IMG/VR virus record: IMGVR_UViG_3300008050_000086
Coordinates: 1 to 45,532 of that record
DNA length: 45,532 nt
Direction: 5' to 3' (one strand)
Origin: a virus
Shown: piece after piece, positions 8,335-44,891 of the stretch
Position numbering within the stretch: position 1 is the stretch's first letter
How the letters are laid out: the number at the start of each line of letters is the position of its first letter
The notes under the pieces: generated by a model
The model's input: the letters and a program-made list of their open reading frames with translations, nothing else
Told to the model about the DNA's origin: nothing
The model's database searches: none
Position numbers and translations under genes: made by a program

Positions 8335-8356
8335 GCTCCCTCCTATTTTAGGTGTT

Positions 8357-12189: not shown

Positions 12190-13070
12190 TAGATCCCACC
12201 CAAATATGGTTCTTTAGTGAAGAGCTGCAAAAGCACGCAGGAGTCTCCGGACCTCCAGCCGAGGCTCCGTCTTCTGGGGGTATGGGGAAGAAGCTACTTG
12301 GCGGGGCCGCCGCTGTCGGCGTAGGTGCTCTGGCTCTGAAGAACCCTAAGTTCGCCAAGAAATACTTTGGAGATGTTGTTAAGGCCGTGAAGAACCCAGT
12401 CAAGGGTGTTCGAGAGGGGTTCCGATCTACCGGAGCTAACACTTCTAGCGTTAAGAGGATGGGCCTCTATCAGAAATCAATAGACCAGGCCCTGAAGGGA
12501 CAACAAGTCTCCTATAAAGCCCTGGGACAGGGAGCAGGGGCTCGCGGTTCCGGCTGGCTCGGAGTGGGTACGACTCGAGGTGGCGCTATACAGGGTACGA
12601 AGGCACAGAAGAAAGCATGGAAGGCTTTATCTGAGTCGGCCCAGAAAGGGACCGCCTCCGAAGCCGCACTTGCTAAGGCATACCAGCAGATTCACGGTAT
12701 GAGCGCTAAAGGACCGACAGGGTTCCAGAAGGCTAGGAATGTCCTGAGTAAGGCTGCTCCGGGAGAGAAGGCTGTGCTAACCGGTTTCACCGGATACGGT
12801 GCAAATGAGGGGATGAAAAAGAAAGACCCGGTGACCGGACGAGAAAGAGGAATAGCCGAGAGAGTTGGGAGGACAGCAGCGGCTGTAGGCTCTGCCGCTC
12901 TGTGGCCTCTATACATGCCGACCGCCGGCGGGTATGGAGCAGGCGCATCTAAGATAGTTCCATCTATCGGCTTTAGCGTTGCCGGTACGGGAGCAGCCCA
13001 GAAGGCTATGGATGTTGCAGGTGGCGGTGGTGGTAAGTTAGTTGATACAGCCTTTGGGCAGAAGTCATGA
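12186..13070 (+). CDS. Gly/Ala-rich virion protein, MIDPxQI-type N-terminus
   Basis: This 294-residue protein overlaps its neighbours at both ends by ATGA. The N-terminus (MIDPTQIWFFSEELQKHAG) closely matches that of the 85-residue protein at 29009 (MIDPDQIYFF). This is followed by a glycine-zipper-like hydrophobic segment (GGAAAVGVGALAL, about residues 38-50) and a long basic, Gly/Ala-rich region. A second hydrophobic stretch (AAVGSAALWPLYMPTAGGYG) and Gly-rich C-terminus follow. Directly upstream of the portal. The build (short aromatic leader, K-x-A, glycine-zipper membrane-active core) suggests an internal virion protein that may be ejected with DNA. This is inference; no family is recognised. 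Confidence 0.6.
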   Translation: MIDPTQIWFFSEELQKHAGVSGPPAEAPSSGGMGKKLLGGAAAVGVGALALKNPKFAKKYFGDVVKAVKNPVKGVREGFRSTGANTSSVKRMGLYQKSIDQALKGQQVSYKALGQGAGARGSGWLGVGTTRGGAIQGTKAQKKAWKALSESAQKGTASEAALAKAYQQIHGMSAKGPTGFQKARNVLSKAAPGEKAVLTGFTGYGANEGMKKKDPVTGRERGIAERVGRTAAAVGSAALWPLYMPTAGGYGAGASKIVPSIGFSVAGTGAAQKAMDVAGGGGGKLVDTAFGQKS

Positions 13071-15109
13071 ATGTAGTAGGTAGTGAAGTTAATAGGTTCA
13101 ACCCCCGCCCCGTATCGTACGAGGGCGGTCGAGGCTTCGGTATCCGCTACCCGAGCCCGTTCTTCGATGTTTCCCAGCAGTTCCTGCCGTCTAACGTCCA
13201 CGAACTTCATAAGTGGTGCAGGTACTACTACCTAACCAATCCGGTGATCAATGTAGCGTGCTCCAAGATGGCGGAGTACCCCGTTACTCCTCTTGTCTTT
13301 GAGACTGAAGACCCCGAGCTGCAGAAGCTATACAGGGGCCTAGAAGATAACCTACGCCTTCGGTCCTTCCAAGTTGAGGTAGGCCTAGACTATTTTGTGT
13401 ATGGAAATGCCTTTGTATCGGTTTTCTTCCCACTAATTAAGTTCTTAGTCTGCCCCAAGTGCAAAGCCAGATACCGCGCAGACAAGAATAGGTTCAAGTA
13501 CAAGTGGAAGAGTGGGCGGTTTTACCTAAAGGAATGTGCTTGCGGGTACCAGGGCTATGCAGAGCAGCGCGATGTTTATATGCGCAGCGTTCGAGACATC
13601 CGCCTGGTCCGGTGGAATCCAGAGAATGTGGACATCAAGCACAATGAGATCACGGGCAAGACCAAGTACTTCTTCCGTCTTCCCAGAGCCACAGCCAATG
13701 ACGTCAAGATGGGCGATAGGGATACTATCGAGACCCTACCACTGGAGTTCTTAGAGGCTGCCAGGAAGAACAAGTCTCTCCTGTTTAGTGATGACAATAT
13801 CTATCATCTGAAGCGTCCGACTATCGCTCAGAAGGACCAGGGTTGGGGCACTCCCCTTATCCTTCCTTTGTTGAAGGATGCGTTCTACCTCCAAGTCATG
13901 AAGAAGGCCCAAGAGTCTATCCTAATGGAGCATATCGTTCCCCTTAGGGTCATCTTCCCTGGCCAGAGTACCGGAGGGAACGAAGGGCCGTACGGGGCAT
14001 ACAATCTTACGAACTGGAAGAAGAAGGTCGACGACGAGATCAACATGTGGAAGCGGGACCATAACTACATCCCCGTTCTCCCCGTGAATATCGGCTATCA
14101 GCAGATGGGCGGTAACGCTCGAGCCCTTCTTATGTATCAGGAGATGAAGTTGGTTGCGGAGCAGATGCTTGCGGGAGCCGGCATCCCAGTAGAGTTCATC
14201 TTTGGCGGATTGCAGTGGAGTGGATCGAGTACCTCACTGCGGGCCCTTGAGAATATGTTCCTCGGGTACAACAAGCAGAGAAGTGAGCTCGTTAATGGGT
14301 TCATCGTTTCTAAGATCGCCTCCTTTATGCAGTGGCCGGATGTTAAGGCTCGGTTCGATAAGTTCAAGATGGCCGACGACCTACAGAGAAGCATGTTCTA
14401 CATGCAGCTCAACCAAGGCCAGAAGGTCAGTGATAGGCGCTTGCTTGAGGAGATCGGAGAGGACTTCGACCTCGAGAACAAGAGAATGGCCGAGGAGATG
14501 AAGTCCTCCTTACAGACCCAACGTAAGATGCAAGTCGCTAGTGCAGACATACAGGGTGAGGCCCAGCTACGAACTTCTAGGTACCAAGCCAAGGCCCAGA
14601 CCCTTGCGGCCAAGTCTCAGATGCAAGCTCAGATGGAGATGCAGCAAGAGCAGATGCAAATGCAGCAGCAGCAAGGGGGCCCTCAGGGAGCTCCTCAGCA
14701 GCAGCAGCAGCAGGGAGAGCAGCCCCAAGGACAAGGAGCCCCCGAGCAGACTCCGGGCATGCCAGAGGGCGCTACGGCGTATCAAGAGAATGCTGGGGCC
14801 CCCAACGAAGAAGGAATGCCCACCTCAATGGGGTCGATGGAGTCTCAGATCCAGCCCGGGTCAGGTGGGGTTGACCTGAGGTACATAGCTCAGAGAGCGG
14901 CGTCCTACTTACGAACAGTTAAAAAAGAAGCAGGGCCAGAGGAGATGTATAAGGCTCTCGCACAGATGCAGACAGAGAACCCGATGCTCTACAAGCTGGT
15001 CGTTCAGCTTCTTAACGAGACAGGGTCGCAAGCCAACCCAATGGATGGCTTGCAGAGCCCTGCTCCCGCCGGTAACCCACAAGCAGACCCCTCCCGACAA
15101 GTTGGTTAG
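13067..15109 (+). CDS. Portal protein
   Basis: This 680-residue protein forms the dodecameric DNA channel at one capsid vertex. Supporting features are the N-terminal YYLTNPVINVACSKMAEYPV, the stretch around VGLDYFVYGNAFVSVFFP, the DIRLVRWNPENVDIKHN region, a central helical core and QMLAGAGIPVEFIFGG with SSTSLRALENMFL, all typical of large phage portals. A zinc ribbon is inserted after the first core strands (C129-x2-C132, C157-x-C159). Residues about 520-620 are Gln/Met/Pro-rich low complexity. The C-terminal tail has a KKEAGPEEM K-x-A motif. Stop TAG overlaps the stop of the convergent minus-strand gene by the shared bases TTAG. Confidence 0.93.
   Translation: MNVVGSEVNRFNPRPVSYEGGRGFGIRYPSPFFDVSQQFLPSNVHELHKWCRYYYLTNPVINVACSKMAEYPVTPLVFETEDPELQKLYRGLEDNLRLRSFQVEVGLDYFVYGNAFVSVFFPLIKFLVCPKCKARYRADKNRFKYKWKSGRFYLKECACGYQGYAEQRDVYMRSVRDIRLVRWNPENVDIKHNEITGKTKYFFRLPRATANDVKMGDRDTIETLPLEFLEAARKNKSLLFSDDNIYHLKRPTIAQKDQGWGTPLILPLLKDAFYLQVMKKAQESILMEHIVPLRVIFPGQSTGGNEGPYGAYNLTNWKKKVDDEINMWKRDHNYIPVLPVNIGYQQMGGNARALLMYQEMKLVAEQMLAGAGIPVEFIFGGLQWSGSSTSLRALENMFLGYNKQRSELVNGFIVSKIASFMQWPDVKARFDKFKMADDLQRSMFYMQLNQGQKVSDRRLLEEIGEDFDLENKRMAEEMKSSLQTQRKMQVASADIQGEAQLRTSRYQAKAQTLAAKSQMQAQMEMQQEQMQMQQQQGGPQGAPQQQQQQGEQPQGQGAPEQTPGMPEGATAYQENAGAPNEEGMPTSMGSMESQIQPGSGGVDLRYIAQRAASYLRTVKKEAGPEEMYKALAQMQTENPMLYKLVVQLLNETGSQANPMDGLQSPAPAGNPQADPSRQVG
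14632..14713 (+). repeat. CAG-type Gln repeat in portal gene
   Basis: This is an imperfect CAG/CAA-rich tract encoding a Gln/Met-rich segment, including six CAG codons in a row at 14696-14713. It lies in the disordered C-terminal third of the portal protein. Such tracts can vary in length by slippage. Confidence 0.7.
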
Positions 15110-15375: not shown

Positions 15376-15692
15376 GGAATTCCCAACATAAGGACGATGC
15401 TCTTGTACCCACAAACCGCACACTCTCCAGTACCCCAATACGGTAGAATGGTGAATCCTTCTGTACAGGTGGTGCAGACCCATACGTGGTCTTCGTAGGA
15501 GTCAGGGATGAGAGCACACTCCGAACATGCTACATTGCTGCATCTTCCAAGAAGTAGAGGGCAGTACGCGGTGTTTACCGGTTCATCTACCTCCTTGCCT
15601 TTTGTAGGTACGGGAGGAACATCTAAATCAAGACCCTCGAGACCGGATTTTACCCGGTCTCGAAGGCCCTTCTTCTTACCCTTCTTAGTCAT
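15372..15692 (-). CDS. Cys-rich zinc-ribbon protein
   Basis: This 106-residue protein starts at ATG 15692, which overlaps the end of the tiny upstream membrane-peptide gene (ATGACTAA). The N-terminal 40 residues are basic (MTKKGKKKGLRDRVKSG). The C-terminal half has nine Cys (RCSNVACSECALI, VCTTCTEGF, ECAVCGYKS), consistent with two or three zinc knuckles like a small rubredoxin or RING-type array. No specific family is recognised. Coupling to both neighbours indicates one transcript with the island genes. Confidence 0.65.
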   Translation of the reverse strand: MTKKGKKKGLRDRVKSGLEGLDLDVPPVPTKGKEVDEPVNTAYCPLLLGRCSNVACSECALIPDSYEDHVWVCTTCTEGFTILPYWGTGECAVCGYKSIVLMLGIP

Positions 15693-15777
15693 CGTAGGAG
15701 AGCGTGTCCTCCGCATAGTTCTCAAACTCAAGACAGAAGGCTACCACGCTACTAGATATGAACAGCCAGAACAGCAT
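15685..15777 (-). CDS. Tiny single-span membrane peptide (30 aa)
   Basis: This open frame from ATG 15777 to TAA 15685 encodes 30 residues: a hydrophobic first half (MLFWLFISSSVVAFCLEF) followed by an acidic tail (ENYAEDTLSYDD). It fills the gap between two minus-strand genes exactly: it begins 2 bases after the previous stop and its last codons overlap the next ATG. This coupling, rather than homology, is the evidence that it is translated. One transmembrane helix with the acidic C-terminus outside the bilayer core is the simplest reading. It could be a small membrane effector or a leader controlling the downstream gene. There is no strong ribosome binding site of its own. Confidence 0.5.
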   Translation of the reverse strand: MLFWLFISSSVVAFCLEFENYAEDTLSYDD

Positions 15778-15779
15778 GG

Positions 15780-15968
15780 CTACCACGCATTCTTGAACTG
15801 GTCGTTGAGATCCTCCAGTCTGCTAGACAGGTTTCTGCTGTCTTTGCGATCTTTTCGGTCTCCTTCCCGTCGATTATCCTCAGTTTCTGTAGTAGAACTG
15901 AGGAGGTCTGGGGGTGGTGTGGAGCCTGTTGTTGGTGCAGTAGGTACTGCGCTTTTTTCTTCAGTCAT
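15780..15968 (-). CDS. Small hydrophilic protein, first gene of island
   Basis: This 62-residue protein starts at ATG 15968 after GGAGGT. The first half is Pro/Thr/Ser-rich and probably disordered (SAVPTAPTTGSTPPPDLL). The second half is highly charged and probably helical (DNRREGDRKDRKDSRNLS, then RLEDLNDQFKNAW). No family is recognised. Leads the island at 15106-15968 and has the GTCATAAG motif 47 bases upstream of its start. Confidence 0.6.
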   Translation of the reverse strand: MTEEKSAVPTAPTTGSTPPPDLLSSTTETEDNRREGDRKDRKDSRNLSSRLEDLNDQFKNAW

Positions 15969-16014
15969 TCTTTACCTCCAAAGAAAGACCGGTGTTGTAT
16001 ACCGATCTGTTAGA

Positions 16015-16022
16015 CTTATGAC
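16015..16022 (-). promoter_or_regulatory. GTCATAAG motif in RNA polymerase/island divergent gap
   Basis: On the minus strand this reads GTCATAAG, 47 bases upstream of the island gene starting at 15968 and 22 bases before the RNA polymerase ATG on the other strand. It is the same 8-mer as at 10165 and 32561. The whole divergent gap is only 75 bases. Candidate promoter for the island, or a bidirectional element. Confidence 0.45.
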
Positions 16023-16043
16023 GTAAAACGGGAGCTTATTGGC

Positions 16044-19000
16044 ATGGCGAATCTGGATCCAGAGGGCGCATATCGCTCCCTCGAAGACAGAACCAAACAA
16101 GCCATTCAGAGCCATTTTCCTATAGTAGGTAGGAAACATCGCCTGGAGTTGGTGGAATTGCGTGTTGAGTCGGACGACTCTACGCGGTCCTCTGCTCACC
16201 ACATCGATAATTTGACCTCACAAAGAGAAGCCCGCCTTAAGGACAACACTTGGGGACCTATGATTCGAGGGGACTTCAAACTAATCGATGTCGAGACAGG
16301 AAAGGTCATCGACCGAGGTGTACGTACATTAGCGCAACTCCCTAAAATAACGCGTAGGTACAGTTACATTGTCGATGGGAATGAGCGCCAGGTCCCGGGA
16401 ATGTTCAGACTGAACCCTGGGGCGTACCACCTAGAGGCAGATAACGGAGACCTCCTGGCCAAGTGGAATGTGGCCCAGGGAAGTAAGATTGGCTCCTTTG
16501 ATATTGTAGTGGAAAGAAAGGACCCGAAGAAGCTCGGCCTCTTGAGGTTGCGAGTTAAGAGTGGGACACAGTCTACTCGTCTTATTTCGTCCTACGAGAT
16601 CCTTAAGACCCTGGGCATCACCGACGGACAGATGAGCTCCGCCTGGGGAGAGAAGGTTCTAGAGGTAAATAAGAGGCTATCGAAGCCCGCAGATCTTCTC
16701 AACTTCCACGAAGCCTTGATGAAGAGGAAAGACCCTAAAGGGTACTCTCATCCTTCCCCGGCAGATGCGAGACAGTTCGTTAAGGAGACCTTCGAAGGAG
16801 CGGAAGTAAATCCCTCTACGATGTTGTCGTCCTTGGGGAAGAAGTTCTCCAACATAACCGGAGATGCACTCCTTCTTTCGTCTAAGAAAGTTATCGATAT
16901 CTCTAGAGGAGACGCGGAGGAGGACGATCGGCAGTCCTTAGCGAACAAGCAGCTCCACGGGATTGAAGACTTTGTCCACGAGGCTCTTACTAAGAAGAGC
17001 AAGATCTATGAGCTTCAGCGAAAGATTAAGAACAACCTGGACAGGAAGGATCGGATCGTCGAGATCATCCCTGCCTCTGAGCAGGGATACGGCAAAGCCA
17101 TAAAGTCCGTCTTCAAGGCAGCCCAGCTTCCAACACAGACCAATCCCCTACAGTTCATGTCGGAACATACCAAAACGACAATCATGGGCCAGGCGTTTGG
17201 CGGAGTTAAGGGAGATAAGATCAATCTCGACAGAGATAAGCTGATCAATCCTTCGCACTTAGGGCTACTGGACCCTCTCCAGACTCCCGAGAATCAGGCC
17301 ACAGGAATCACCCTCCATGTACCTCTTGGCGCTGAGAAGAAAGACAAGGCCCTCGTCACTCGAGTCCTCAACATAAAGACAGGGAAACTGGAGACCAAAA
17401 GTGCGGCCGAGCTTGAGAGAGCAGTGGTTGCCTACCCTGATCAGGCCCGTATTGAGAGGAAGAAGGACGGCTCTGTCAAGGTTACTCCCATGGATCGAAG
17501 CAGTACGACGGTCTACGATTCGGATAGGAGCACTGCGCAGAGACCTTGGTCTGAAGTCCAATACATCCTTCCGTCGGCTAAGCAGCTGTTCTCAGTCAGC
17601 GCCAACATGATCCCGTTCATTCAGAACAATAACGGGAACCGAGCGATGATGGCGGCTAAGCAGCAAGAACAGGCGGTGGGCCTCTTGCATAGAGAGAAGC
17701 CCCTAGTTCAGTCTTCGGCTTCTGGGTCCATGTCATTCGAGCAGCTAATGGGGGCGTTCTCCAGCACCATTAGCGACGTAACTGGGACAGTAACTAAGGT
17801 CACCGAAGACGAGGTCTTGGTAAAGACTAAAGAAGGAAAGACCGTAAAGCACAGCATCTACAACCATCACCCTCTGAATGGCTCGAAGCACATGATGCAC
17901 TCGAGTACTAAGGTGAAGGTCGGCGATCCCGTGAAGAAGGGTGGGTTGCTGGCGGACTCTAATTTCACAGAGGACGGGCAGCTGGCCCTTGGGACCAATC
18001 TCCGCGTTGGGTACCTTCCCTACCAGGGATACAACTTCGAGGACGGGATTGTGATCTCGGAGACAGCGGCCACTAAGTTGGTTTCGTCTCATCTGCATGT
18101 TGAGCAGGCGCTGATGACGCCTAATGTCGTAGTTAATAGAAAGCTGTGGAGAACCTACGCCGGCCTAAACAAGGCAACTCCTGAGATCCTCAAGAAGCTG
18201 GATGAAGACGGCATCATCAAGAAGGGTACGAAGGTCGAGCCCGGTGATGTGCTGATCGCGAAGCTGCATAAGACAGACCCGACTCGAGAGAACCAGGCAA
18301 TCCAAAAGGCCCTAAAGAGGGCTATCCGGGACTACTCCGATAAAGCAGTAACGTGGAAGCACGAATACAGTGGAGTCGTAGCCAGAGTAGTGAAGACTCG
18401 GAAGAAGATCTCCGTGTACATTCGCACAGAGCAGACCTTAGAGCCTGGGGATAAGCTCTCCGGTAGGCACGGCAATAAAGGGATTGTCACTAAGATCCTC
18501 CCTGACGATGAGATGCCTCACGACAAGAAAGGTAACGCGGTACATGTCCTTTTGAGTCCGGCGGGAGTCCCTTCTCGGATGAACGTAGGGCAGCTCCTGG
18601 AGACAGCCGCAGCCAAGATAGCTAAGAAGACCGGCAAGACCTATATGGTCGAGAACTTTGACCCGACCGTGGATTACACGCAGAAGGTTAAAGACGATCT
18701 AAAGAAGCACGGCCTTAGTGACACCGAGGAGCTATTCGACCCTGCAACTAATGCCAGCCTTGGGCAGGTCATGGTAGGGCCGCAGTACCTTCTTAAGTTG
18801 GACCATCAAGCAGAGAAGAAGATTTCTGCTCGAGCAGGTGGATATGGCTATGCCTACAAGCCCTCTGGAGAAGCCATCTCTGGATCGGGGATTGGCGTAG
18901 GCGGTCAAAAGATCGGGGCCCTGGACTCGTATGCGCTATTAGCTCATGGAGCGAAGCACAACCTAAGGGAGATGATGACCTACAAGTCCGATGCCGGCCA

Positions 19001-22000
19001 GGCAGAGGACGTTTGGTTAAAGATCATGGCAGGTGGACGCCCGCCTACCCCCAAAGTTCCTCGGTCTATGGACCACTTCAAGAAGTACCTTCGAGCCCTT
19101 GGAATCTACACAGAGCCCAAGGCGGGGGTTTATGGCCTGTCCCCGATGACGGATAAGCAGACGGTCGCCCAGAGTAAGGGACTGTTGACTCTCCCTGAGA
19201 AGACCCTGGCGGCCAAAGGTGCCCTGACTCGAGAGGAAAGAGGAGGTCTCTTTGATAAGGCGAAGACCGGAGGGATGGATGGGCAGTTTTGGTCCCACAT
19301 GGACCTCGGTATGCGAATGCCCAACCCAGTGTTCGAGGGGCCCATACAGGGAATCTTAGGACTGAAGAAGAAAGAGTTCGAGACTCTGGTCAGCGAGGAA
19401 GGGGCCGTCGGTAAGAAGTCGGGCTTCCAGATTATAGAAGAGAAGCTGAGAGCTATAAATGTCGACAAGGAACTCAAGAAGACCGAAGAAGATCTCAAGA
19501 CCGCAAAGAAGGCAGAGCTCAACAAGCTCTACAAAAAAGCTAGGTATCTCCGGGCTTTAAAAGAACTAAAGATCGCCCCGGTAGACGCGTATACCAATAA
19601 GGTTCTACCTGTTCTTCCCCCTAAGCTACGAAAAATTAGTATTGGGTACGACGGCTCCCAGATCATTGACCCCACTAACCAGCTGTATGCCGTAGTTGGG
19701 ATGATGACTCGACAATTAAAGAACGCAGAGAAGGAACGCCTTCCAACTAAGGAAGTTCATAAGATCCAAGGACAGCTCTACGATGCTGTTCGCGCCCTAC
19801 GGATGACCGGGATGCAGCTGGAGGGTAAGCAGCTTCCCAGCCTTATGGACTCTATGGCATCTACGCCTCCGAAGCATTCGTACTTCCAGAGTGGAGTACT
19901 CAACAAGAGACAGGACCTATCTGGGCGAACCGTAATCATCCCCGAGCCGAAACTGAATCTAGATGAGGTAGGTGTTCCGATCCCCGTTGCCATGGAGATG
20001 TACAAACCCTTCGTCATCAAAGAACTGTGGCGGAAGATGTCTAGAGCGAAGAGCCCCGGCCAGGCCCGAAAGATGATCAAAGAGAATGATCCCGCCGCAA
20101 CGGAGGCTCTGGAGAGGGTAGTCAAGGAGCGCCCCGTCCTGATGAAGAGGGACCCTGCACTGCACAAGTTCTCCGTAATGGCATTTAAGCCCAAGTTAGT
20201 TTCCGGCAAGGCCGTAAAGATCCATCCCCTTATTGTTGGAGGATTCAATGCTGACTTCGACGGAGATGCGATGGCCATGTTCGTGCCCATCTCTGATAAG
20301 GCTGTCGACGAGGCCCTGCACAAGATGCTCCCGTCTAAGAGTCTATTCTCTCCAACGCACGGAGGGATAATGGTTGCCCCGAGTCAGGACGCTCTACATG
20401 GGCTTTACCAGGCTACAAAATGGGGAAAGAAGGTCTCGGGTCAGTTCACTGAGAAAGAAGCACTCTCCAAGATGAAGTCTGGAGAGCTCAAAGCAGACTC
20501 GGTAATCAAAGTAACCGGGTTTGATAAGCCTACGACCCCCGGTCGCCTTAGCCTTAATGCGACTCTCCCGGACGGAGTTAAGGGAGATGAGCAGATCCTG
20601 TTCGACTCTAAATATCGCATGGCCAAGAAAGGTATGAAGAGCTTCGCATCCAGGGTCGCCAAAGAAGATCCGGAGGGATTTGGCAGGATGATCGATGCCT
20701 GGAAGGAGCTAGGGTTCACTCAGGCATTCCGAAGTGGGAGCTCTTTTAGTCTTAATGACTTCCACGACGGTAAGGAGATTAGAGACCAGGTTCTTCGGCC
20801 CTTCAAGAAGGAAGAGGCGACGGTTAGGAAGTCCTCCCTCTCCAGAAAGAAGAAGGACGCAAAGATTATCTCGATCTACAAGAAGGCTCAGGCTGCCCTG
20901 AAACAGGTAGGAGAGGCTCGGTATAAGAGGCTGGGAACCAACCGCATGTTCGAGTGGGCAGAGAGCGGGGCCAAGTCAGACTGGAATCAATTTAGTCAGC
21001 TAGTAATGGGCCCTATGCTTGTAGAGGACCCAAAGAAGCGAACAGTCCCCGTCCCTATCACTAAGTCTTTTGGTGAGGGTCTCCCTGTTTCTCAGTACTG
21101 GGCCTCTTTACATGGTGCCAGAAAGGGAACCCTGGATAGGGCGGCAGGAACTAAAGATCCTGGAGCACTGACTAAGGACCTAATCAACACAGTAATCAAC
21201 TACTCGGTAACTGTGGATGACTGTGGAACGAAGAAAGGGACCCTGCTTCCTACAAGTAATGCCGACATAGAAGGCAGGTACCTGGCGTCCGATGTGTCCC
21301 TTCGAGGAGGCGGAAACGTCTCTCGAGGTACTCTCATATCTACTCAGATACACGCTAGACTGAAGAACTCGGGACCTCAGAAAGTCCTGGTCAGGTCTCC
21401 TCTTCACTGTCAGCAAGGACAAGGTATCTGCGCTACGTGCTACGGCCTCAATGAGCGGGGGTCTCTGTATGCCAACGGCACAAACGTGGGCGTCATCGCA
21501 GGTCACGCCCTTGGAGAGCCCGTTACTCAAATGCAGATGAGGACCTTCCACACCGGAGGTGTTGGGACGGGGGTGACCGACTATTACGCAGGAGCCAAAG
21601 ACCTGTTTAAGGTTCCCCTCAAGCTGAGAGGCTCCGCTACTTTGGCGATAGTTTCTGGCACTGTTCAGAAGATTACGACAGATCCTCTAGGAGGTAAGGA
21701 AGTCCTTATCGACGGGAAGTCTCACACTATTCCCCACACCACGCCCCTTCTGGCTCATATTCGAGTAGGTACGAGAGTCAAGAAAGCAGATCCGCTGTCC
21801 TCAGGAAGAAGCAATCCGCATGACATCCTTAAGATCACTAACAATATCAACTCTGTAAGGAACCACCTGACAACTGAGCTGGATAAGCTGTACACAGAGA
21901 GCACAGGGAATGAGCGGAGAAGAAATATTGAAGTGGTAGTCAAAGCGATGACAAATGTCACTCGCGTGACGAGTGGGTCCGATCAGGAAGGACTGCTACG

Positions 22001-22370
22001 CGGACAGTTAATGCCCCTCTCTCAAGTAGAGGAGCGCAACAAGGAACTGAAGGCTGCAGGGCTGCCAGAAGTGAAACATACTCCTGTCCTCAAGCCACTT
22101 GATAAAGTACCCTTGTCCGGTCAGGAAGACTGGATGGCTCGCCTAAACTATCAGAGACTTAAGGATACCTTTATTGAGGGGTCGGCACAGAACTGGAAAT
22201 CGGATATCCATGGACATCCTATACCGGGTCTCGCCCATGGGGCAGAGTTTGGCCTAGAGCCTTCTTTACCAGTACCGACTTCGGTTAAGATACCAAGTAA
22301 GCCGACTATAAAATCAATTGCACCTATAACTCCCCAGAGAGGAATGTTCTCTGGGTTCTTCGGAGGTTAA
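16044..22370 (+). CDS. Single-chain beta-beta' fusion RNA polymerase
   Basis: This 2108-residue DNA-directed RNA polymerase has both large-subunit homologues in one chain. Beta-like half: YIVDGNERQVPGMFRLNPG; DPLQTPENQ (D410); IPFIQNNNGNRAMM (from 523); LALGTNLRVGYLPYQGYNFEDG (E666, D667); LEPGDKLSGRHGNKG (from 799); PAGVPSRMNVGQLLE; REMMTYKSDAG (about 975-985). Beta-prime-like half, from about 1040: LPPKLRKISIGYDGSQI with clamp-helix-like segment; QDLSGRTVIIPEP; HPLIVGGFNADFDGDAM, with the metal-binding Asp triad in NADFDGD at 1402-1408; bridge-helix region WASLHGARKGTLDRA (from 1686); zinc site C1727, C1789, C1796, C1799; MQMRTFHTGG (from 1830). The N-terminal beta-prime zinc domain is absent. 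ATG 16044 follows GGGAG. It lies between portal and virion-type genes, with the next start 2 bases after its stop. Cellular subunits total about 2750 residues, so this is a trimmed core. Confidence 0.97.
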   Translation: MANLDPEGAYRSLEDRTKQAIQSHFPIVGRKHRLELVELRVESDDSTRSSAHHIDNLTSQREARLKDNTWGPMIRGDFKLIDVETGKVIDRGVRTLAQLPKITRRYSYIVDGNERQVPGMFRLNPGAYHLEADNGDLLAKWNVAQGSKIGSFDIVVERKDPKKLGLLRLRVKSGTQSTRLISSYEILKTLGITDGQMSSAWGEKVLEVNKRLSKPADLLNFHEALMKRKDPKGYSHPSPADARQFVKETFEGAEVNPSTMLSSLGKKFSNITGDALLLSSKKVIDISRGDAEEDDRQSLANKQLHGIEDFVHEALTKKSKIYELQRKIKNNLDRKDRIVEIIPASEQGYGKAIKSVFKAAQLPTQTNPLQFMSEHTKTTIMGQAFGGVKGDKINLDRDKLINPSHLGLLDPLQTPENQATGITLHVPLGAEKKDKALVTRVLNIKTGKLETKSAAELERAVVAYPDQARIERKKDGSVKVTPMDRSSTTVYDSDRSTAQRPWSEVQYILPSAKQLFSVSANMIPFIQNNNGNRAMMAAKQQEQAVGLLHREKPLVQSSASGSMSFEQLMGAFSSTISDVTGTVTKVTEDEVLVKTKEGKTVKHSIYNHHPLNGSKHMMHSSTKVKVGDPVKKGGLLADSNFTEDGQLALGTNLRVGYLPYQGYNFEDGIVISETAATKLVSSHLHVEQALMTPNVVVNRKLWRTYAGLNKATPEILKKLDEDGIIKKGTKVEPGDVLIAKLHKTDPTRENQAIQKALKRAIRDYSDKAVTWKHEYSGVVARVVKTRKKISVYIRTEQTLEPGDKLSGRHGNKGIVTKILPDDEMPHDKKGNAVHVLLSPAGVPSRMNVGQLLETAAAKIAKKTGKTYMVENFDPTVDYTQKVKDDLKKHGLSDTEELFDPATNASLGQVMVGPQYLLKLDHQAEKKISARAGGYGYAYKPSGEAISGSGIGVGGQKIGALDSYALLAHGAKHNLREMMTYKSDAGQAEDVWLKIMAGGRPPTPKVPRSMDHFKKYLRALGIYTEPKAGVYGLSPMTDKQTVAQSKGLLTLPEKTLAAKGALTREERGGLFDKAKTGGMDGQFWSHMDLGMRMPNPVFEGPIQGILGLKKKEFETLVSEEGAVGKKSGFQIIEEKLRAINVDKELKKTEEDLKTAKKAELNKLYKKARYLRALKELKIAPVDAYTNKVLPVLPPKLRKISIGYDGSQIIDPTNQLYAVVGMMTRQLKNAEKERLPTKEVHKIQGQLYDAVRALRMTGMQLEGKQLPSLMDSMASTPPKHSYFQSGVLNKRQDLSGRTVIIPEPKLNLDEVGVPIPVAMEMYKPFVIKELWRKMSRAKSPGQARKMIKENDPAATEALERVVKERPVLMKRDPALHKFSVMAFKPKLVSGKAVKIHPLIVGGFNADFDGDAMAMFVPISDKAVDEALHKMLPSKSLFSPTHGGIMVAPSQDALHGLYQATKWGKKVSGQFTEKEALSKMKSGELKADSVIKVTGFDKPTTPGRLSLNATLPDGVKGDEQILFDSKYRMAKKGMKSFASRVAKEDPEGFGRMIDAWKELGFTQAFRSGSSFSLNDFHDGKEIRDQVLRPFKKEEATVRKSSLSRKKKDAKIISIYKKAQAALKQVGEARYKRLGTNRMFEWAESGAKSDWNQFSQLVMGPMLVEDPKKRTVPVPITKSFGEGLPVSQYWASLHGARKGTLDRAAGTKDPGALTKDLINTVINYSVTVDDCGTKKGTLLPTSNADIEGRYLASDVSLRGGGNVSRGTLISTQIHARLKNSGPQKVLVRSPLHCQQGQGICATCYGLNERGSLYANGTNVGVIAGHALGEPVTQMQMRTFHTGGVGTGVTDYYAGAKDLFKVPLKLRGSATLAIVSGTVQKITTDPLGGKEVLIDGKSHTIPHTTPLLAHIRVGTRVKKADPLSSGRSNPHDILKITNNINSVRNHLTTELDKLYTESTGNERRRNIEVVVKAMTNVTRVTSGSDQEGLLRGQLMPLSQVEERNKELKAAGLPEVKHTPVLKPLDKVPLSGQEDWMARLNYQRLKDTFIEGSAQNWKSDIHGHPIPGLAHGAEFGLEPSLPVPTSVKIPSKPTIKSIAPITPQRGMFSGFFGG

Positions 22371-22743: not shown

Positions 22744-23976
22744 ATGGGCAGAAACGCAGCAGCACCGGCGCGTCCAAGCGCTACTCGCATCTACCAGGGC
22801 AGAGTCACTGAAGTGTCTCCGTCTAGGTGGCTGTGCAAGGTGTACTGTAAACAGGCCAACAAGCCGATGATGAATGTGCGGATTCCTTCCCTCTACTCGC
22901 ATGCTGCGGGTGGGGAGGGGATTCACTACATGCCAGAGGTCGGTTGCTTCGTCTGGGTCTGTGTGCCTTCTGATTCTGAAGATACGGCATTCCTGCTACT
23001 GTCGGGTGCTAGCATAGTTAAAGACGCGTCCGCAGACTCCCAGCCAGGGTCGTTCGATATGAACCGCCCTCTCCTAAATCCAGGAGATCTAGCTCTCCTG
23101 ACGAGAGACGGTAACGGCCTCGCCCTCCGCAGAGGTGGAGTAGTAGAGTTACGAGGAACCCCGCTATCTAAGATAATCTTCGATCCGCCCCGTAATAGAA
23201 TTCTCAACATCGCAGAGACATACGAGGTACAAACCTTCGGAGGGTCTCTGGACTGGAGAAACCTGCGTCGTGAGGAGAGCGGCGACGGGCTAATGGGGAC
23301 TAGGTTCCAGATTAAGGCCAAAGAGTTTGCAGAGCACCCAGGGCACAGCGTCAGATTGACGCTCGGAAATACTGGAGAAGTTCTCCCCCTTCAGTCTGGG
23401 GATGATGCAGAAAAGCAGACCGAGGAAGAAACAGAATTTAAGTACACCTTGTCCTCTACCAGCAAGAAAGTAGAGGGACAGGATGTCGTAAGCGTTATCC
23501 CCGGACAAGAGATCACAGTCAAGACCAAGACGATTAAGGCTGTGAACCCGAGTGCCACAGTTGTTGACCTCACCGTCTTTAAGGATGAGACCGTATCCGA
23601 AGACAAACTTGAGAAGTCTTTGTCATTAGGGATAGATAGAGAGGGCGACCTCCAGCTCGAGACTGAGGGGGCTGTGAAGATCGATGCATCTTCTAAATGG
23701 GTAGAGATCGTAGTTGGCAGTTCTACTCCCTTTACAAATACAGAGGCTGCAGGTGCAAAGAAGGTACTGATCACTACAGGTAGTCAGGGCTCTACAGAGC
23801 CTGTCACGAGGGGATACTCCCTCATATCGGACTTAGCCCTATCCCTAACAGAGATCTCCGTAGCACTTAAGGGCCTAGGAATACCTACACCCAGTACTGA
23901 TGAATTTGTAGCGAGCGTCATAGAATCAGTCGGCGCGGGGGCCCCCTACCTATCCAATACCCTGGAGAGTGAGTGA
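22744..23976 (+). CDS. Baseplate/tail spike-like protein (OB-fold N-terminus)
   Basis: This 410-residue protein has an N-terminal domain (about 12-90: RIYQGRVTEVSPSRWLCKV, VRIPSLYSHAAGG, PEVGCFVWVCVPSDSED, AFLLLSG) resembling the OB-fold of gpV/gp5-type baseplate hub or spike proteins, in which a central hub needle starts with such a fold. The rest is rich in short beta strands and Thr/Val (TVKTKTIKAV, ATVVDLTVF), as in trimeric beta-helix spikes. A short helical C-terminus follows (LISDLALSLTEISVALKGLG). This is the only tail-like gene I can support in the window. The exact role (central spike or puncturing device) is inference. Confidence 0.6.
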   Translation: MGRNAAAPARPSATRIYQGRVTEVSPSRWLCKVYCKQANKPMMNVRIPSLYSHAAGGEGIHYMPEVGCFVWVCVPSDSEDTAFLLLSGASIVKDASADSQPGSFDMNRPLLNPGDLALLTRDGNGLALRRGGVVELRGTPLSKIIFDPPRNRILNIAETYEVQTFGGSLDWRNLRREESGDGLMGTRFQIKAKEFAEHPGHSVRLTLGNTGEVLPLQSGDDAEKQTEEETEFKYTLSSTSKKVEGQDVVSVIPGQEITVKTKTIKAVNPSATVVDLTVFKDETVSEDKLEKSLSLGIDREGDLQLETEGAVKIDASSKWVEIVVGSSTPFTNTEAAGAKKVLITTGSQGSTEPVTRGYSLISDLALSLTEISVALKGLGIPTPSTDEFVASVIESVGAGAPYLSNTLESE

Positions 23977-32601: not shown

Positions 32602-34320
32602 ATGCCGGTAGACACCAATTTTGATGGGGCTTCGTGGGAGTGGTCCGCTCCATTGGACCAAGACATAGTCTCAGCAGAAGGAGCGGATGACCGGAGGCTT
32701 AAAGTCTCCCCCTCTCAGTTTGTAGAGACTACGGTCTTAATGCCAGACGCCCATACTCGATCCTTAGTGCCTTTCTCATTTGATGAGCGTAGGTACCTTA
32801 GGGACATCTATGACTCTTCGAGTACCCGAACGCTCCTTATGTGCGGAAGGCAGGTAGAGAAGAGCACCACTTTGGGAAACAAGGCATTGGCGTACGCCTG
32901 TCTAATCCCTCACTTCAAGATCTTGTATGTCTCTCCCTCTAGTACACAGACTAAGGAGTTCTCTAAGACACGAATCAAGGAGACTCTTGAGACCTGTCCG
33001 GACCTGAAGACCTGGTTCCCTGCCCACCTGACAGACAACGTCTTCGAGAAGAAGGCCATCAATAGAAGCCAGTTAACGCTTAGATACGCATTCTTGAACG
33101 CGGATAGATGTCGTGGACTTTCTGCAGATCTGATCTGCATGGACGAGTTTCAGGACCTATTGCTTGATAACATCCCTGTCATTGAAGAGGCCGCGTCCCA
33201 CTCCCCGTTCAAGTGGTTTATCTACTCAGGGACTCCGAAGTCCTTAGATAATCCTATTCAGCACTATTGGGATAACTACTCGACTAAGAATGAGTGGGCG
33301 GTACCGTGCGATAGACACGGGACGCCCAAGACTCCTGGTTCCTGGCACTGGAACATCCTGGGAGAGAAGAACATCGGCATCGATAGTCTTATCTGCGATA
33401 GATGTGGCCATAGGATAGACCCCGCACATCCTATGGCGCAGTGGGTTCGAACTGCTACCCCTAACCAGAAGTACGATACTTTCGAGGGATACAGAGTTCC
33501 CCAGTTGATGGTTCCCTGGGCAGAGTGGTCCAATATTCTAACTAAGTACAACGCGTACCCAAGAGCCAAGTTCTACAATGAGGTCTTGGGGATGAGCTTC
33601 GATTCTGGACAGAGGCCCCTTACTCGCCAGGATGTATACGACAACTGTGATCCAGACTTCAGCATGGCAGCAGAAGCGATCAAAGAGATTCAGGGGAAGC
33701 TGCTCTGCAATAAGATCTATGCCGGCATTGACTGGGGACAAGACAGTACGAACTCCTATACGGTGCTAACTCTAGCGACCTATATGGATGGGTTCTTCCG
33801 TGTCTTCTTCGTGCATAGGTTCAGCGGTGCCGAGTCGGAGCCGCGAGCTCAGATCGAGAAGATAAAGAAGTTCATCTCTACGTTTAAGATATCCCGAGTC
33901 GGGGTTGACTACGGTGGAGGTTACTGGCCCAACGATGAACTTCTGCGTTCCTTCGGGTCGCAGAAGATTGTTAGATATCAGTACTCTACTCCCAAGACCT
34001 TACTTAAGTACGACTCCGGAAAGGGTCGATTCTTGGTGCACAGGTCCGAGGTCATGAGTGCGGTATTTAACTGCTTAAAGAGACGCACTGTCTTTAGGTT
34101 CCCTAAGTGGTCTGAGTTCAGCTCCTACGCATCCGATATGCTCTCCATCTTCTCGGAGTACAATGAGCGAACGCGTATGACTGAGTATAAGAAGTCGCCG
34201 AGCACCACGGACGATGCTTACCACTCTCTAGTCCTCTGTTTCCTTGCCTCGATGATTGATCATCCTCGTCCCGACATTATCCTGCCAAGTTCGGGAATAG
34301 ACGGGCACCTAAAAAGCTAA
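32602..34320 (+). CDS. terL: Large terminase subunit
   Basis: This 572-residue enzyme packages DNA. The ATPase domain comes first: a P-loop-like CGRQVEKST (81-89), Walker B LICMDEFQD (D181, E182) and coupling motif SGTPKS. Next come a zinc knuckle (LICDRCGHR) and the RNase H-fold nuclease, with AGIDWGQDS (D377), VGVDYGGGY and STTDDAYHS (D537, D538). In the P-loop, Glu replaces the Gly before Lys, a variant that also occurs in GpA-like phage terminases. ATG 32602 follows GAGG. It lies apart from the portal (about 17 kb away), an unusual arrangement. No small terminase was recognised. Confidence 0.94.
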   Translation: MPVDTNFDGASWEWSAPLDQDIVSAEGADDRRLKVSPSQFVETTVLMPDAHTRSLVPFSFDERRYLRDIYDSSSTRTLLMCGRQVEKSTTLGNKALAYACLIPHFKILYVSPSSTQTKEFSKTRIKETLETCPDLKTWFPAHLTDNVFEKKAINRSQLTLRYAFLNADRCRGLSADLICMDEFQDLLLDNIPVIEEAASHSPFKWFIYSGTPKSLDNPIQHYWDNYSTKNEWAVPCDRHGTPKTPGSWHWNILGEKNIGIDSLICDRCGHRIDPAHPMAQWVRTATPNQKYDTFEGYRVPQLMVPWAEWSNILTKYNAYPRAKFYNEVLGMSFDSGQRPLTRQDVYDNCDPDFSMAAEAIKEIQGKLLCNKIYAGIDWGQDSTNSYTVLTLATYMDGFFRVFFVHRFSGAESEPRAQIEKIKKFISTFKISRVGVDYGGGYWPNDELLRSFGSQKIVRYQYSTPKTLLKYDSGKGRFLVHRSEVMSAVFNCLKRRTVFRFPKWSEFSSYASDMLSIFSEYNERTRMTEYKKSPSTTDDAYHSLVLCFLASMIDHPRPDIILPSSGIDGHLKS

Positions 34321-38036: not shown

Positions 38037-39998
38037 GTGATAACCAAGTACTCCCACTACTCTGGATCCTCAAAATCAGGTCGACCCCTAATCCACCTGG
38101 TAGAGCCGGGGTCTACTCACGGTCTCTCGAATACCGAGGGCCTGTGTAAGACCGCATCTGGAGAACACCTTCCAGAAGTCATGGAGTTAATTGAGTCTCT
38201 AGAGGCACAGCCCGGACGACTCTACTTAGTTAACTCTGCCTTAGGTGCTGGAGAGTACGTAGGATTCAACCTACGAGGTGACTGGTTTGGGGAAGATGGC
38301 CTCAAGCATGCCCCTCCAGGGTTCGAAGATATCCCAGTTTGGGATATTGATGCCAGGAGAAGGGCCGCCAACTCGGTGGAGTCCGCAGGTAGATGGGGCT
38401 CCTTAGCTTGGGGTTACTCTACTTTCTACAATGCACACAGATTTAGGCACCACGTAAATAAAGACCCCAACAAAGCATACGGATATATTCTTGGTGCTTT
38501 CTGGGACGATAGGATGAAAAGAGTAATCCTGGTCTCAGAGTTAGTAGAGGAGATGTGCCGCAAGCTGGGAGCCGGACACATCTACCAGAGAATTAAGTCC
38601 GGAGAGTTCCCCGACTCCTCTATGGGCAGTAAAGTCCCATACGATCGCTGCTCCATCTGCGGAAACATCGCGAAGAATCCTGCGACCTACTGCGAGCACG
38701 TATCCAAGACAGCGATGCCTCCCTACGGGATGAAGTCGCTACTCTCGGATGGCAGAATTTGCGGAGTGTATAATGACTATCCTAGATTCTTTGATGATTC
38801 TTTTGTGTTTATTGGCGCGGAGCGTTCTGCAAAGGTTATGTCCGACGTTACTGACCAGGTGAAGGGAAACCGTGCGTACACGCAGACCATATACCCTTTT
38901 GTGCGCCCCATGGGCAAAGTAGCCTCCGCACCAGAACCTAGTGTTACAGCACCTGCCCCCATGATCCCTGACTTTGTCCTGGAGGAGAAGCTATCCAAGG
39001 TGCTGAGTCTGATTCCGGCACAGACCTCCCTCGAAAGGGAAGGCCTTCGTTATTTTATGCAGGAGAGGTTGGCCCAGGAGAGAATTAAGACAGGCACCAT
39101 GTCTGCCGGCGAGTTTGAGGTATGGGACCAGCTGTCTAAGAATCTATTCGTCCGACAGTATGGAGTGTATCCTGCCCAGCTCTCTTATCTAAAGACTCTA
39201 TTTAATAGTAGGGCAGACCAGCTTCTTGTAGGGGATGTAACGAAAGCAGCCAGCATGCCTAAGTGGGCAGAGATGCTGAAGAAGATCCCTGCTCCCTCCC
39301 CTAAACAGATGAGTATAGTGCGCGGCCAAGAGGACACTCTCCCCGAACTGCCACGACATATCCTCGATAAACTTTCGGATAATCCAGGGACTAACTTGCG
39401 CGCAGCTGCCAGGATTGGGATAGTAATGCGTCCTAGGGAGTTTCAACACATTATGATTAGGAAGATAGATCCGGCCAGGGCCAATTCTCTCTACGAGAGA
39501 GGTGAGGTGTTTAAATCACTGCCACTGACCGAAGAATCTTCCCAGTTCAACGCACAGTCGTATGCGCCACAGTCTGCGATGAAGAGAGTTATTGATCTAT
39601 TGAGTCCTTTTTTGGCCCAGAGGTCTTTTGCCCCTTCTGCAGTCAGGATGCGTATTACGAAGGTTGCGGATAATGCAAAACTACCCACGCTGAGGGAAGT
39701 AGATGGCCTGGAAGACATTTCCCGCCTTTACAATTCCTACAGACTTGGGTTAATAGAAAAGTCTCCCGATTTGGGGGCCGTCAAGGTAGGCTTCGTTGCA
39801 TCATCTTCTATAGAAGATGATGTGAAAACTGCAGAAGATAGTGTTACCATCTCTAATCTTCTGCTACATGTTGCTTATTGGCCCGGTCTCGGATTAGGAT
39901 TGAGCCAGCCGGAAGAGGGGTACGCCCCCGAAGACGCCGCCTCCCAAACTACAAACACTGTAACCAATTATGGAGAAAGTACCCATGTCACTCCTTGA
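38037..39998 (+). CDS. Candidate prohead maturation protease with long C-terminus
   Basis: This 653-residue protein starts at GTG 38037. Residues about 130-200 read AHRFRHHVNKDPNKAYGYI, AFWDDRMKRVILV and later FPDSSMGSKV. That arrangement (His, Gly-strand, then Ser about 55 residues later in a D-x-S-M-G context) resembles the His/Ser pair of phage prohead proteases (HK97/T4 gp21-like). H138/H139 and S195 are the candidate catalytic residues. It is followed by a zinc knuckle CSICGNIAKNPATYCEH (205-221) and a 430-residue helical C-terminal part with K-x-A sites, possibly a scaffold removed by self-cleavage. Located just upstream of scaffold-like and capsid genes, as expected for a protease. The family call is by pattern only. 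Confidence 0.65.
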   Translation: MITKYSHYSGSSKSGRPLIHLVEPGSTHGLSNTEGLCKTASGEHLPEVMELIESLEAQPGRLYLVNSALGAGEYVGFNLRGDWFGEDGLKHAPPGFEDIPVWDIDARRRAANSVESAGRWGSLAWGYSTFYNAHRFRHHVNKDPNKAYGYILGAFWDDRMKRVILVSELVEEMCRKLGAGHIYQRIKSGEFPDSSMGSKVPYDRCSICGNIAKNPATYCEHVSKTAMPPYGMKSLLSDGRICGVYNDYPRFFDDSFVFIGAERSAKVMSDVTDQVKGNRAYTQTIYPFVRPMGKVASAPEPSVTAPAPMIPDFVLEEKLSKVLSLIPAQTSLEREGLRYFMQERLAQERIKTGTMSAGEFEVWDQLSKNLFVRQYGVYPAQLSYLKTLFNSRADQLLVGDVTKAASMPKWAEMLKKIPAPSPKQMSIVRGQEDTLPELPRHILDKLSDNPGTNLRAAARIGIVMRPREFQHIMIRKIDPARANSLYERGEVFKSLPLTEESSQFNAQSYAPQSAMKRVIDLLSPFLAQRSFAPSAVRMRITKVADNAKLPTLREVDGLEDISRLYNSYRLGLIEKSPDLGAVKVGFVASSSIEDDVKTAEDSVTISNLLLHVAYWPGLGLGLSQPEEGYAPEDAASQTTNTVTNYGESTHVTP

Positions 39999-43748: not shown

Positions 43749-44891
43749 ATGGATTATACAGCTGAAATGGTCAATTCAGGCTTCATTGAGCGGTTGGAGA
43801 CCGAAGGTCCCACTAAGACCGCCGCTGCTAGCCTTAACTACATTAAAGATCGACTCCGTGAGTCGAGCTTCGCCGATATGGTGATTCCCAACGAGCGAGT
43901 CGTTCGTGGTGATCTCCAGCGTTCGACGGAGCACGACACCATGGTGAAGATCGTGGACATCGAGCCTGGCAGCAGGGCGATGGCCATTAACTTCCGTGGA
44001 CAGCCCACCGCTTCCTACGTCAGTGGTAAGCGGTATGCGATCGGCTTCTTCACGATCTCGAGCCTCAAGTTCGAAATCGTTGAGCAGGAGCTGATGGCGT
44101 ACGAAATGCCCGTCACGCGTATCATTGAGGAGAACAGCCTCAAGGATATGGTTGAGATTAAGGACCGCGAGTTCCTCAACCACGTGGAGTCGTGCATTGA
44201 TGGTATGCAGGGTGAGGTCGGTAGTGCTGCTTACAGCGCCACCAACGTCAACGCTGGTACGGCTATCTCGTGCTCGAAGCTAAAGGGTGCGCTTGCGCTC
44301 CAGGTTGCTGCGGGTGCGGATACCTTCGCTACCCTCGCTATCCAGCGCTCGGATATCGTTAACATCAAGAAGCTCCTGAAACGACAGGTTGCTGATGCTA
44401 CCGGTACCGTGGTCCGTCAGGGCCGTCTGCGTCCGGCAGTCATGCTGATCACTGAGTCCGATGCGGACGATTTCGATCAGTGGACTCTCGAGGACTATGG
44501 TGATCGTCTCCAGAGCGAAACCGCTCTTGATGGCTACACCTACAACAAGGTCCTCGGTCTGCGCGTTATCCGTACGATCAAGAACGACATTCTCCGCGAA
44601 GGCAACGTGTATGTCTTCACGGCTCCGGAGTTCTTCGGCCGTAACTACACCCTGAACGACGTGAAGTTCTATATCGATAAGATTGCGAACCGTATCTTCT
44701 GGCAGGCGTGGATGGACGTGGGTATGGGTTTCGGTAACATCGCCTCGGTGGTGAAGCTTGAGCTCTATTCCCAGGCCTCGGACGGAGCCGTTGACGCTTC
44801 TTCCGTACAGCCGATCGCTGAAGAGGATGTTGGAGCACAGAATAACAAGGCGTCGGATGGTCTCACCTTCCCCGCTATGAATGTGTTCTAA
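43749..44891 (+). CDS. Major capsid protein (HK97-like)
   Basis: This 380-residue protein forms the icosahedral shell. Start ATG 43749 follows AAGGAG. Supporting features: N-terminal region (IERLETEGPTKTAAASL, with KTAAAS at 23-28 as a possible cleavage site) then SSFADMVIPNERVVRGD, the spine-helix-like IEENSLKDMVEIKDREFLNH, P-domain strands (RPAVMLITESDADDFDQW) and C-terminal EFFGRNYTLNDVKFYIDK with IFWQAWMDVGMGFGNI. Length and order suit HK97-fold shells. Codon use is strongly adapted (CGT/CGC, GTC, AAG), and it is followed by a strong terminator, both expected for the most abundant protein. Upstream lie protease, scaffold-like and decoration-like genes. Confidence 0.85.
   Translation: MDYTAEMVNSGFIERLETEGPTKTAAASLNYIKDRLRESSFADMVIPNERVVRGDLQRSTEHDTMVKIVDIEPGSRAMAINFRGQPTASYVSGKRYAIGFFTISSLKFEIVEQELMAYEMPVTRIIEENSLKDMVEIKDREFLNHVESCIDGMQGEVGSAAYSATNVNAGTAISCSKLKGALALQVAAGADTFATLAIQRSDIVNIKKLLKRQVADATGTVVRQGRLRPAVMLITESDADDFDQWTLEDYGDRLQSETALDGYTYNKVLGLRVIRTIKNDILREGNVYVFTAPEFFGRNYTLNDVKFYIDKIANRIFWQAWMDVGMGFGNIASVVKLELYSQASDGAVDASSVQPIAEEDVGAQNNKASDGLTFPAMNVF

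What the first reader, a model, noticed from the sequence alone, without database searches (positions are those of the whole stretch)
16044..22370. Giant single-chain beta-beta' RNA polymerase encoded by a phage
One 2108-codon frame carries nearly the full set of beta and beta-prime core motifs in cellular order, including NADFDGD and GDKLSGRHGNKG. Fused rpoB-rpoC genes are known in a few bacteria (Helicobacter, Wolbachia). Phage multisubunit RNA polymerases, such as those of phiKZ and AR9 relatives, are usually split into several chains. A phage enzyme fused end to end in cellular order, at about three quarters of cellular length, is unusual and may define a separate lineage.
Basis: partly seen in the sequence, partly recalled or inferred. 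Interest (0 to 1): 0.92.

Follow-up and report, generated by a model that had tools for sequence, protein, structure and literature searches.

The report
Single-chain phage RNA polymerase family
A large tailed phage carries its own bacterial-style RNA polymerase with the two big subunits joined into one giant protein; the fusion is real, is shared by about a hundred related phages, and in one studied relative the polymerase is the most heavily detected protein of the purified virus particle.

Summary
Confirmed: one 2,108-codon frame (16044-22370, +) encodes beta then beta-prime in cellular order with an intact catalytic set. It is not an assembly join. Of about 111 IMG/VR and isolate loci that span the junction, 109 are fused (94 family sequences are distinct below 95% identity). 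The two exceptions are a one-base deletion and an in-frame TGA. Both halves place outside every sampled bacterium. Helicobacter fusions nest with Campylobacterota, so those fusions are independent. The N-terminal zinc-binding domain of beta-prime is lost, the second zinc site is kept, and no alpha gene was found in 17 records. The gene sits in the structural module after the portal gene. In the distant isolate phage Arash, the homologue (beta fused to the first half of beta-prime) is the most-detected virion protein (published MS). Best reading: a virion-packaged, alpha-independent, cellular-type RNA polymerase that starts early transcription. Catalytic competence is well supported by sequence; packaging is inferred. 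A deep phage branch was published in 2020 (mReC), but this lineage lacks the mReC capsid hallmark, and no paper I found describes the end-to-end fusion. Verdict: new variant of a known kind.

The parts
16044..22370 (+). single-chain beta-beta' RNA polymerase, 2,108 aa
   Evidence: fused in relatives
16030..16034 (+). GGGAG ribosome-binding site, 9 nt before the ATG
   Evidence: sequence
16044..19109 (+). beta half (residues 1-1022)
   Evidence: NCBIfam rpoB 16-1022; model pLDDT 84, TM about 0.71-0.73 to bacterial beta chains
18447..18482 (+). GDKLSGRHGNKG motif of beta (residues 802-813)
   Evidence: GDK, R808, H809 and NKG invariant in 13 relatives
19110..19178 (+). junction (residues 1023-1045): end of beta runs almost directly into the beta' S-x-G-x-x-x-x-P-E-K-T motif, no long linker
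   Evidence: purifying selection; boundary set by eye
19179..22178 (+). beta' half (residues 1046-2045), without the N-terminal zinc-binding domain
   Evidence: rpoC 1110-2045; no CxC/CxxC in 111 phage segments; model pLDDT 88, TM 0.81 to Bacillus RpoC
20247..20267 (+). catalytic NADFDGD (residues 1402-1408)
   Evidence: ADFDGD invariant in 13 relatives
21222..21440 (+). second zinc site, Cys 1727, 1789, 1796, 1799: the only four cysteines of the protein
   Evidence: conserved in 92-95% of relatives
21516..21560 (+). trigger-loop region GEPVTQMQMRTFHTGG
22179..22370 (+). family-specific C-terminal tail (WKSDIHGHPIPGLAHGAEFG...)
   Evidence: conserved in relatives, not aligned to the bacterial beta' ends
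13067..15109 (+). portal protein, upstream of the polymerase
   Evidence: phrog_2833 E 7e-4; 31% over 548 aa to the Arash portal Gp204 region, E 2e-88
22744..23976 (+). baseplate/gpV-like OB-fold protein, downstream
   Evidence: PF04717 E 0.007, weak; conserved in relatives
32602..34320 (+). large terminase subunit
   Evidence: phrog_675 E 8e-59; PF05876 E 1.5e-9
38037..39998 (+). probable head maturation protease
   Evidence: phrog_18299 E 7e-5
43749..44891 (+). candidate major capsid protein
   Evidence: 80-81% identical in two relatives, among the most conserved of the window; no Pfam match; inference

Best explanation
The gene encodes the catalytic core of a cellular-type (two-barrel) RNA polymerase as one polypeptide: complete beta, a junction of about 20 residues, then beta' without its N-terminal zinc-binding domain. 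Joining the two chains most likely replaces the job of the alpha dimer, which holds beta and beta' together in bacteria and for which no gene was found. It is most likely made late with the head and tail proteins, packaged in the virion and injected with the DNA, where it transcribes the first phage genes at phage promoters. Promoter choice most likely needs a separate phage-encoded sigma-like or other factor. Steps shown: fusion, conserved catalytic residues, bacterial RNA polymerase fold of each half by prediction, absence of recognisable alpha in the records searched, placement in the structural module. Steps inferred: activity, alpha-independent assembly, packaging in this phage (taken from Arash), early-gene role, promoter factor.
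For: Intact catalytic set: ADFDGD, GDK..RH.NKG and the MRTFH trigger loop. Predicted halves match bacterial beta (TM about 0.7) and beta' (TM 0.8). Fused in 109 of about 111 junction-spanning loci and in 75 of 76 of a second set that partly overlaps the first. RNA_pol_L (alpha) found in 0 of 17 records while 13 of 14 control genomes rang. Only one recognisable beta' system per record in 16 records. A portal homologue lies within 3.5 kb upstream on the same strand in 74 of 101 loci; in the other 27 it lies further upstream or was not detected. Virion MS of phage Arash: Gp206 (beta plus beta'N in one frame) 3,516 spectra, 128 unique peptides, 100% coverage, the top protein; Gp216 (beta'C) 1,210 spectra; sigma factor Gp10 467; portal Gp204 877 (PMC10585845). 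Gp206 is 31% identical to the window protein over about 1,500 residues.
Against: No activity data exist. Arash is a distant member with a split beta', and its authors allow carry-over of abundant infection proteins as an explanation for enzymes in the particles. The window is a 45.5 kb fragment, so absence of sigma, alpha or a second polymerase cannot be read from it. Sigma70 region 2 was not found in the 14 fused-family metagenomic records searched, apart from one sub-threshold hit, whereas D69 and Arash have it. The enzyme could borrow host alpha or sigma.
Confidence: 0.62

Rival explanations
1. It is a non-virion polymerase made after infection to transcribe middle or late genes, as phiKZ and AR9 nvRNAP do, and the particle signal in Arash is carry-over.
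For: Known jumbo phages have such a second enzyme (PMC7598289). The Arash authors list carry-over as possible.
Against: No second beta' was recognised in 16 records, so something else would have to start transcription (host enzyme). The gene sits in the structural block, not the replication block. Gp206 is the top protein in virion MS, above the major capsid protein.
Confidence: 0.25
2. A virion enzyme that depends on host alpha, omega or sigma subunits, using the fusion only for co-delivery.
For: The beta and beta' cores remain readily alignable to bacterial ones, unlike crAss enzymes.
Against: The beta' N-terminal zinc-binding domain is lost, and related jumbo-phage enzymes work without alpha (PMC7598289). 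Not tested directly.
Confidence: 0.25
3. A recent capture of a fused bacterial rpoBC gene (Helicobacter/Wolbachia type).
For: The gene order is the same, and the best NCBIfam score is to the fused beta/beta' model PRK09603.
Against: Both halves lie outside all sampled bacteria with support 0.999-1.0, while the fused Helicobacter genes nest in Campylobacterota with support 1.0. Wolbachia itself was not sampled; a Rickettsiales genome was.
Confidence: 0.01
4. Assembly or sequencing artefact joining two genes.
For: One near-identical pair (L026/L029) differs by one base at the junction, which opens or closes the fusion.
Against: 109 of about 111 loci are fused, at 27-73% identity, from many samples and from cultured phages.
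Confidence: 0.01

Closest known systems
Salmonella phage Arash Gp206/Gp216 and Vibrio phages D69, D148, D181 (isolates)
   Same: beta fused to beta'N in one frame (in D181 beta is also interrupted upstream of the junction); portal upstream in Arash, homologous region in D69; about 29-31% identity to the window protein
   Different: beta' is split after the catalytic barrel, with beta'C made from a separate gene; sigma70-family factors are present in D69 and Arash; annotated only as 'beta subunit' or hypothetical
mReC phages (Weinheimer and Aylward 2020, PMC7481178)
   Same: tailed phages with alignable beta and beta' that branch outside Bacteria
   Different: mReC capsid proteins are Gp23 (PF07068), found in 0 of 29 records of this family; fusion is not mentioned for mReC. 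Some of these contigs may nevertheless have been in that dataset
crAss-like phage virion RNA polymerase (phi14:2 gp66)
   Same: giant single chain (2,180 aa), virion protein, next to structural genes
   Different: no detectable sequence similarity (BLASTP E 0.55)
phiKZ/AR9 jumbo-phage vRNAP and nvRNAP
   Same: two-barrel phage enzymes without alpha, some packaged
   Different: four or five separate polypeptides, far more divergent
Fused rpoBC of Helicobacter
   Same: beta-beta' fusion in the same order
   Different: about 2,900 aa; cellular; independent fusion by trees
P23-45 tail-tape-fused vRNAP and single-chain nvRNAP (PMC10770324)
   Same: phage two-barrel enzymes; one is packaged
   Different: the packaged one is fused to the tape measure protein; sequence relation to the window protein not tested here

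Membership tests
Cellular-type (two-barrel) multisubunit RNA polymerase core | beta and beta' domains in order with the DFDGD catalytic triad | tested here: met
Cellular-type (two-barrel) multisubunit RNA polymerase core | alpha assembly platform | tested here: not met
   PF01193 in 0 of 17 records, 13 of 14 control genomes rang; records may be incomplete and the window is a fragment
Cellular-type (two-barrel) multisubunit RNA polymerase core | beta' N-terminal zinc-binding domain (CxC..CxxC) | tested here: not met
   0 of 111 phage segments
mReC phages | Gp23-type capsid protein (PF07068) | tested here: not met
   0 of 29 records; positive controls T4, RHph_TM30 and Carin-5 rang
mReC phages | terminase PF03237 | tested here: inconclusive
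   window terminase matches PF05876 best; PF03237 below its cut-off
mReC phages | polymerase branching outside Bacteria | tested here: met
   no archaeal outgroup and no published mReC sequences in the tree
crAss-like phage RNA polymerase | sequence homology to phi14:2 gp66 | tested here: not met
   BLASTP E 0.55; profile comparison not run
phiKZ/AR9-type jumbo-phage RNA polymerases | beta and beta' each split into two or more chains | tested here: not met
Fused bacterial rpoBC (Helicobacter type) | placement inside the fused bacterial clade | tested here: not met
Virion RNA polymerases (by function) | protein present in virions and injected | not testable with these tools
   present in virion MS of the distant relative Arash (PMC10585845); no data for a fully fused member; injection untested

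The most novel reading that the evidence does not exclude
A self-sufficient single-chain version of the cellular RNA polymerase (no alpha, no omega, no beta' N-terminal zinc-binding domain) that phages pack and inject, forming a separate deep lineage in which beta and beta' have been one protein since its origin; within it a single clade later split beta' after the catalytic barrel, near where cyanobacteria and jumbo phages also split it.
Probability: 0.4. Interest if true: 0.82.

Novelty: new variant of a known kind. Interest (0 to 1): 0.62.

Why it matters
How phage two-barrel polymerases hold together without alpha is an open question in the field (PMC7598289). A family that keeps cellular-like sequence but is covalently fused and apparently alpha-less offers a direct test, and one protein is easier to express than four or five. 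Because beta and beta' remain readily alignable, the family can also inform the root of the polymerase tree. The apparently derived split of beta' in the Arash/D69 clade suggests that the split shared by cyanobacteria and jumbo phages can arise independently, which weakens it as evidence of a cyanobacterial origin.

Tried and rejected
Unfused sister: L029 looked like separate overlapping beta and beta' genes, but it is a one-base deletion against near-identical L026. Interrupted relatives L128/L311: in-frame TGA codons, read as recoding. Search of genome contigs with the window protein for a host or prophage found no relative; a second scan with the family alignment served to fetch bacterial references. 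T7-type polymerase search: no match, but no control rang, so uninformative. Sigma searches: region 2 above threshold only in D69 and Arash; region 4 helix-turn-helix matches are frequent but mostly below threshold. Omega was not searched. IQ-TREE with bootstraps timed out; FastTree with SH supports was used instead. No archaeal or eukaryotic sequences were at hand, so the root could not be tested. mReC supplementary lists could not be opened, so overlap with that dataset is unknown. Literature searches found no paper describing this fusion, but only open-licence papers are held.

Full report
Observation. The window is a whole 45,532-base IMG/VR virus record. The frame 16044-22370 is open for 2,108 codons, with a ribosome-binding site. 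Beta and beta' profiles match the two halves with E-values near 1e-121 and 1e-154, and Pfam finds the domains in cellular order. Against bacterial sequences the catalytic NADFDGD, the beta GDK..GRHGNKG segment and the trigger loop MRTFHTGG are intact, and most of their residues are invariant among 13 relatives.

The fusion is real. tblastn and profile searches of relatives give one uninterrupted frame across the junction in 109 of about 111 loci, and 94 of the family sequences are distinct below 95% identity. A further scan gave 75 of 76 fused; its contigs partly overlap the first set. The exceptions are L029, a one-base deletion against near-identical L026, and L128/L311, which have in-frame TGA codons. 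Nonsynonymous change is low across the junction. The number of loci is larger than the number of independent phages, since several contigs recur between scans.

Anatomy. Beta is essentially complete to residue about 1022. The junction is about 20 residues, with boundaries set by eye on the alignment. Beta' resumes at the conserved S-x-G-x-x-x-x-P-E motif. The N-terminal zinc-binding domain is missing: no CxC or CxxC in 111 phage segments. The second zinc site is kept; the protein has exactly four cysteines, all there. A C-terminal tail with a conserved HPIPGLAHGAEFG motif is specific to the family. AlphaFold models of the two halves (pLDDT 84 and 88) match bacterial beta and beta' chains best among solved structures. 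The halves were folded separately, so their mutual packing was not predicted.

Surroundings. Minus-strand replication genes (polymerase A, primase, DnaB helicase, DEAD helicase, uracil-DNA glycosylase) lie left; portal, polymerase, baseplate-like protein, terminase, head protease and a candidate capsid gene lie right. The order is kept in relatives G001 and G002. A portal homologue lies within 3.5 kb upstream of the polymerase in 74 of 101 loci with enough upstream sequence.

Other polymerase parts. One recognisable beta' system per record in 16 records. Alpha domain in 0 of 17 records, with 13 of 14 controls positive. Sigma region 2 above threshold only in the isolates D69 and Arash; sigma region 4 above threshold in five of 25 records, for example a 449-aa coiled-coil protein in G009. 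So a promoter factor is likely but not identified for the window's close relatives.

Mechanism. The strongest external evidence is the published virion proteome of Salmonella phage Arash (PMC10585845): Gp206 is the protein with most spectra (3,516; 128 unique peptides; 100% coverage), with Gp216, sigma factor Gp10 and helicase Gp217. Gp206 was annotated as beta, but its 1,525-aa frame covers beta and the first half of beta'. Its authors offer early transcription or carry-over as explanations. Together with the structural-module position this makes a virion polymerase the best reading. It is inferred for the window phage.

Phylogeny. In FastTree (LG) trees of beta, beta' and both, the fused phages form one clade (SH 0.999-1.0) apart from all sampled bacteria, and the fused Helicobacter genes group with Campylobacterota (1.0). 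Phages with separate beta and beta' genes (Carin-5, YerA41, and for beta' also RHph_TM30 and Va2) join on long branches; their sister position is weakly supported in beta (0.54) and in the concatenation (0.44) and better in beta' (0.98), and long-branch attraction is possible. The clade with beta' split after the catalytic barrel (Arash, D69 and eight contigs) is monophyletic (0.999 concatenated, 0.84-0.86 in the halves); the root inside the phage clade is weakly supported, so 'derived split' rests also on parsimony. Its split (profile 1466/1470) lies near the cyanobacterial one (1484/1501), the site also shared by jumbo phages (PMC7598289).

Known or new. A deep phage lineage was reported as mReC (PMC7481178), whose capsid proteins were all Gp23 type; none of 29 records of this family matched Gp23, while T4, RHph_TM30 and Carin-5 did. 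Since that paper detected only eight capsid proteins in 97 contigs, the overlap remains open. crAss gp66 shows no sequence similarity. I found no paper that describes the end-to-end fusion in this lineage. I rate it a new variant of a known kind.

Noticed in passing
L016:9197-10257; L020:12287-13761 and 15089-16128; L023:12182-13656 (also L022, L028): In-frame inserts of about 350-490 codons in the polymerase of relatives, in L020, L022, L023 and L028 at the catalytic NADFDGD site. LAGLIDADG matches in L016, L020 and L023; intein-splicing domain matches in L020 and L023 below the curated cut-off. Probable inteins.
   Followed up: partly
L128:7135-12907 and L311:7192-12964: Polymerase frame holds five in-frame TGA codons, some at places where relatives have an aromatic residue: probable TGA recoding in these phages. 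L285 has a TGA inside the frame too.
   Followed up: partly
L003:2001-9755 (Vibrio phage D181): Beta is interrupted at residue ~527 by a homing endonuclease gene and small frames; D69 lacks this insert.
   Followed up: no
L328 (G009:9247-9405): 449-aa protein with a clear sigma70 region 4 (E 3e-19) behind a coiled coil; the region 2 search gave no match at this place. Candidate promoter factor.
   Followed up: partly
window 35428-36123 (-): MerR/helix-turn-helix protein with a sub-threshold sigma70 region 4 match (E 3e-5), conserved in G001 and G002.
   Followed up: no
window 15106-15968 (-): Small minus-strand genes lie between portal and polymerase; two are conserved in relatives. The plus-strand frames listed there look spurious.
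   Followed up: partly
window 9295-9379 (-): ARAGORN reports a tRNA-Leu (TAA anticodon) inside the same-strand DEAD-helicase gene 8357-9724; possibly a false positive.
   Followed up: no
window 7606-8391 (-): Uracil-DNA glycosylase family protein (PF03167, E 1e-28) in the replication block.
   Followed up: no
L032:2-937: A 23 kb IMG/VR contig (3300025133_000606) carries the last 312 residues of the polymerase at 100% identity to the window, starting at its contig edge.
   Followed up: no
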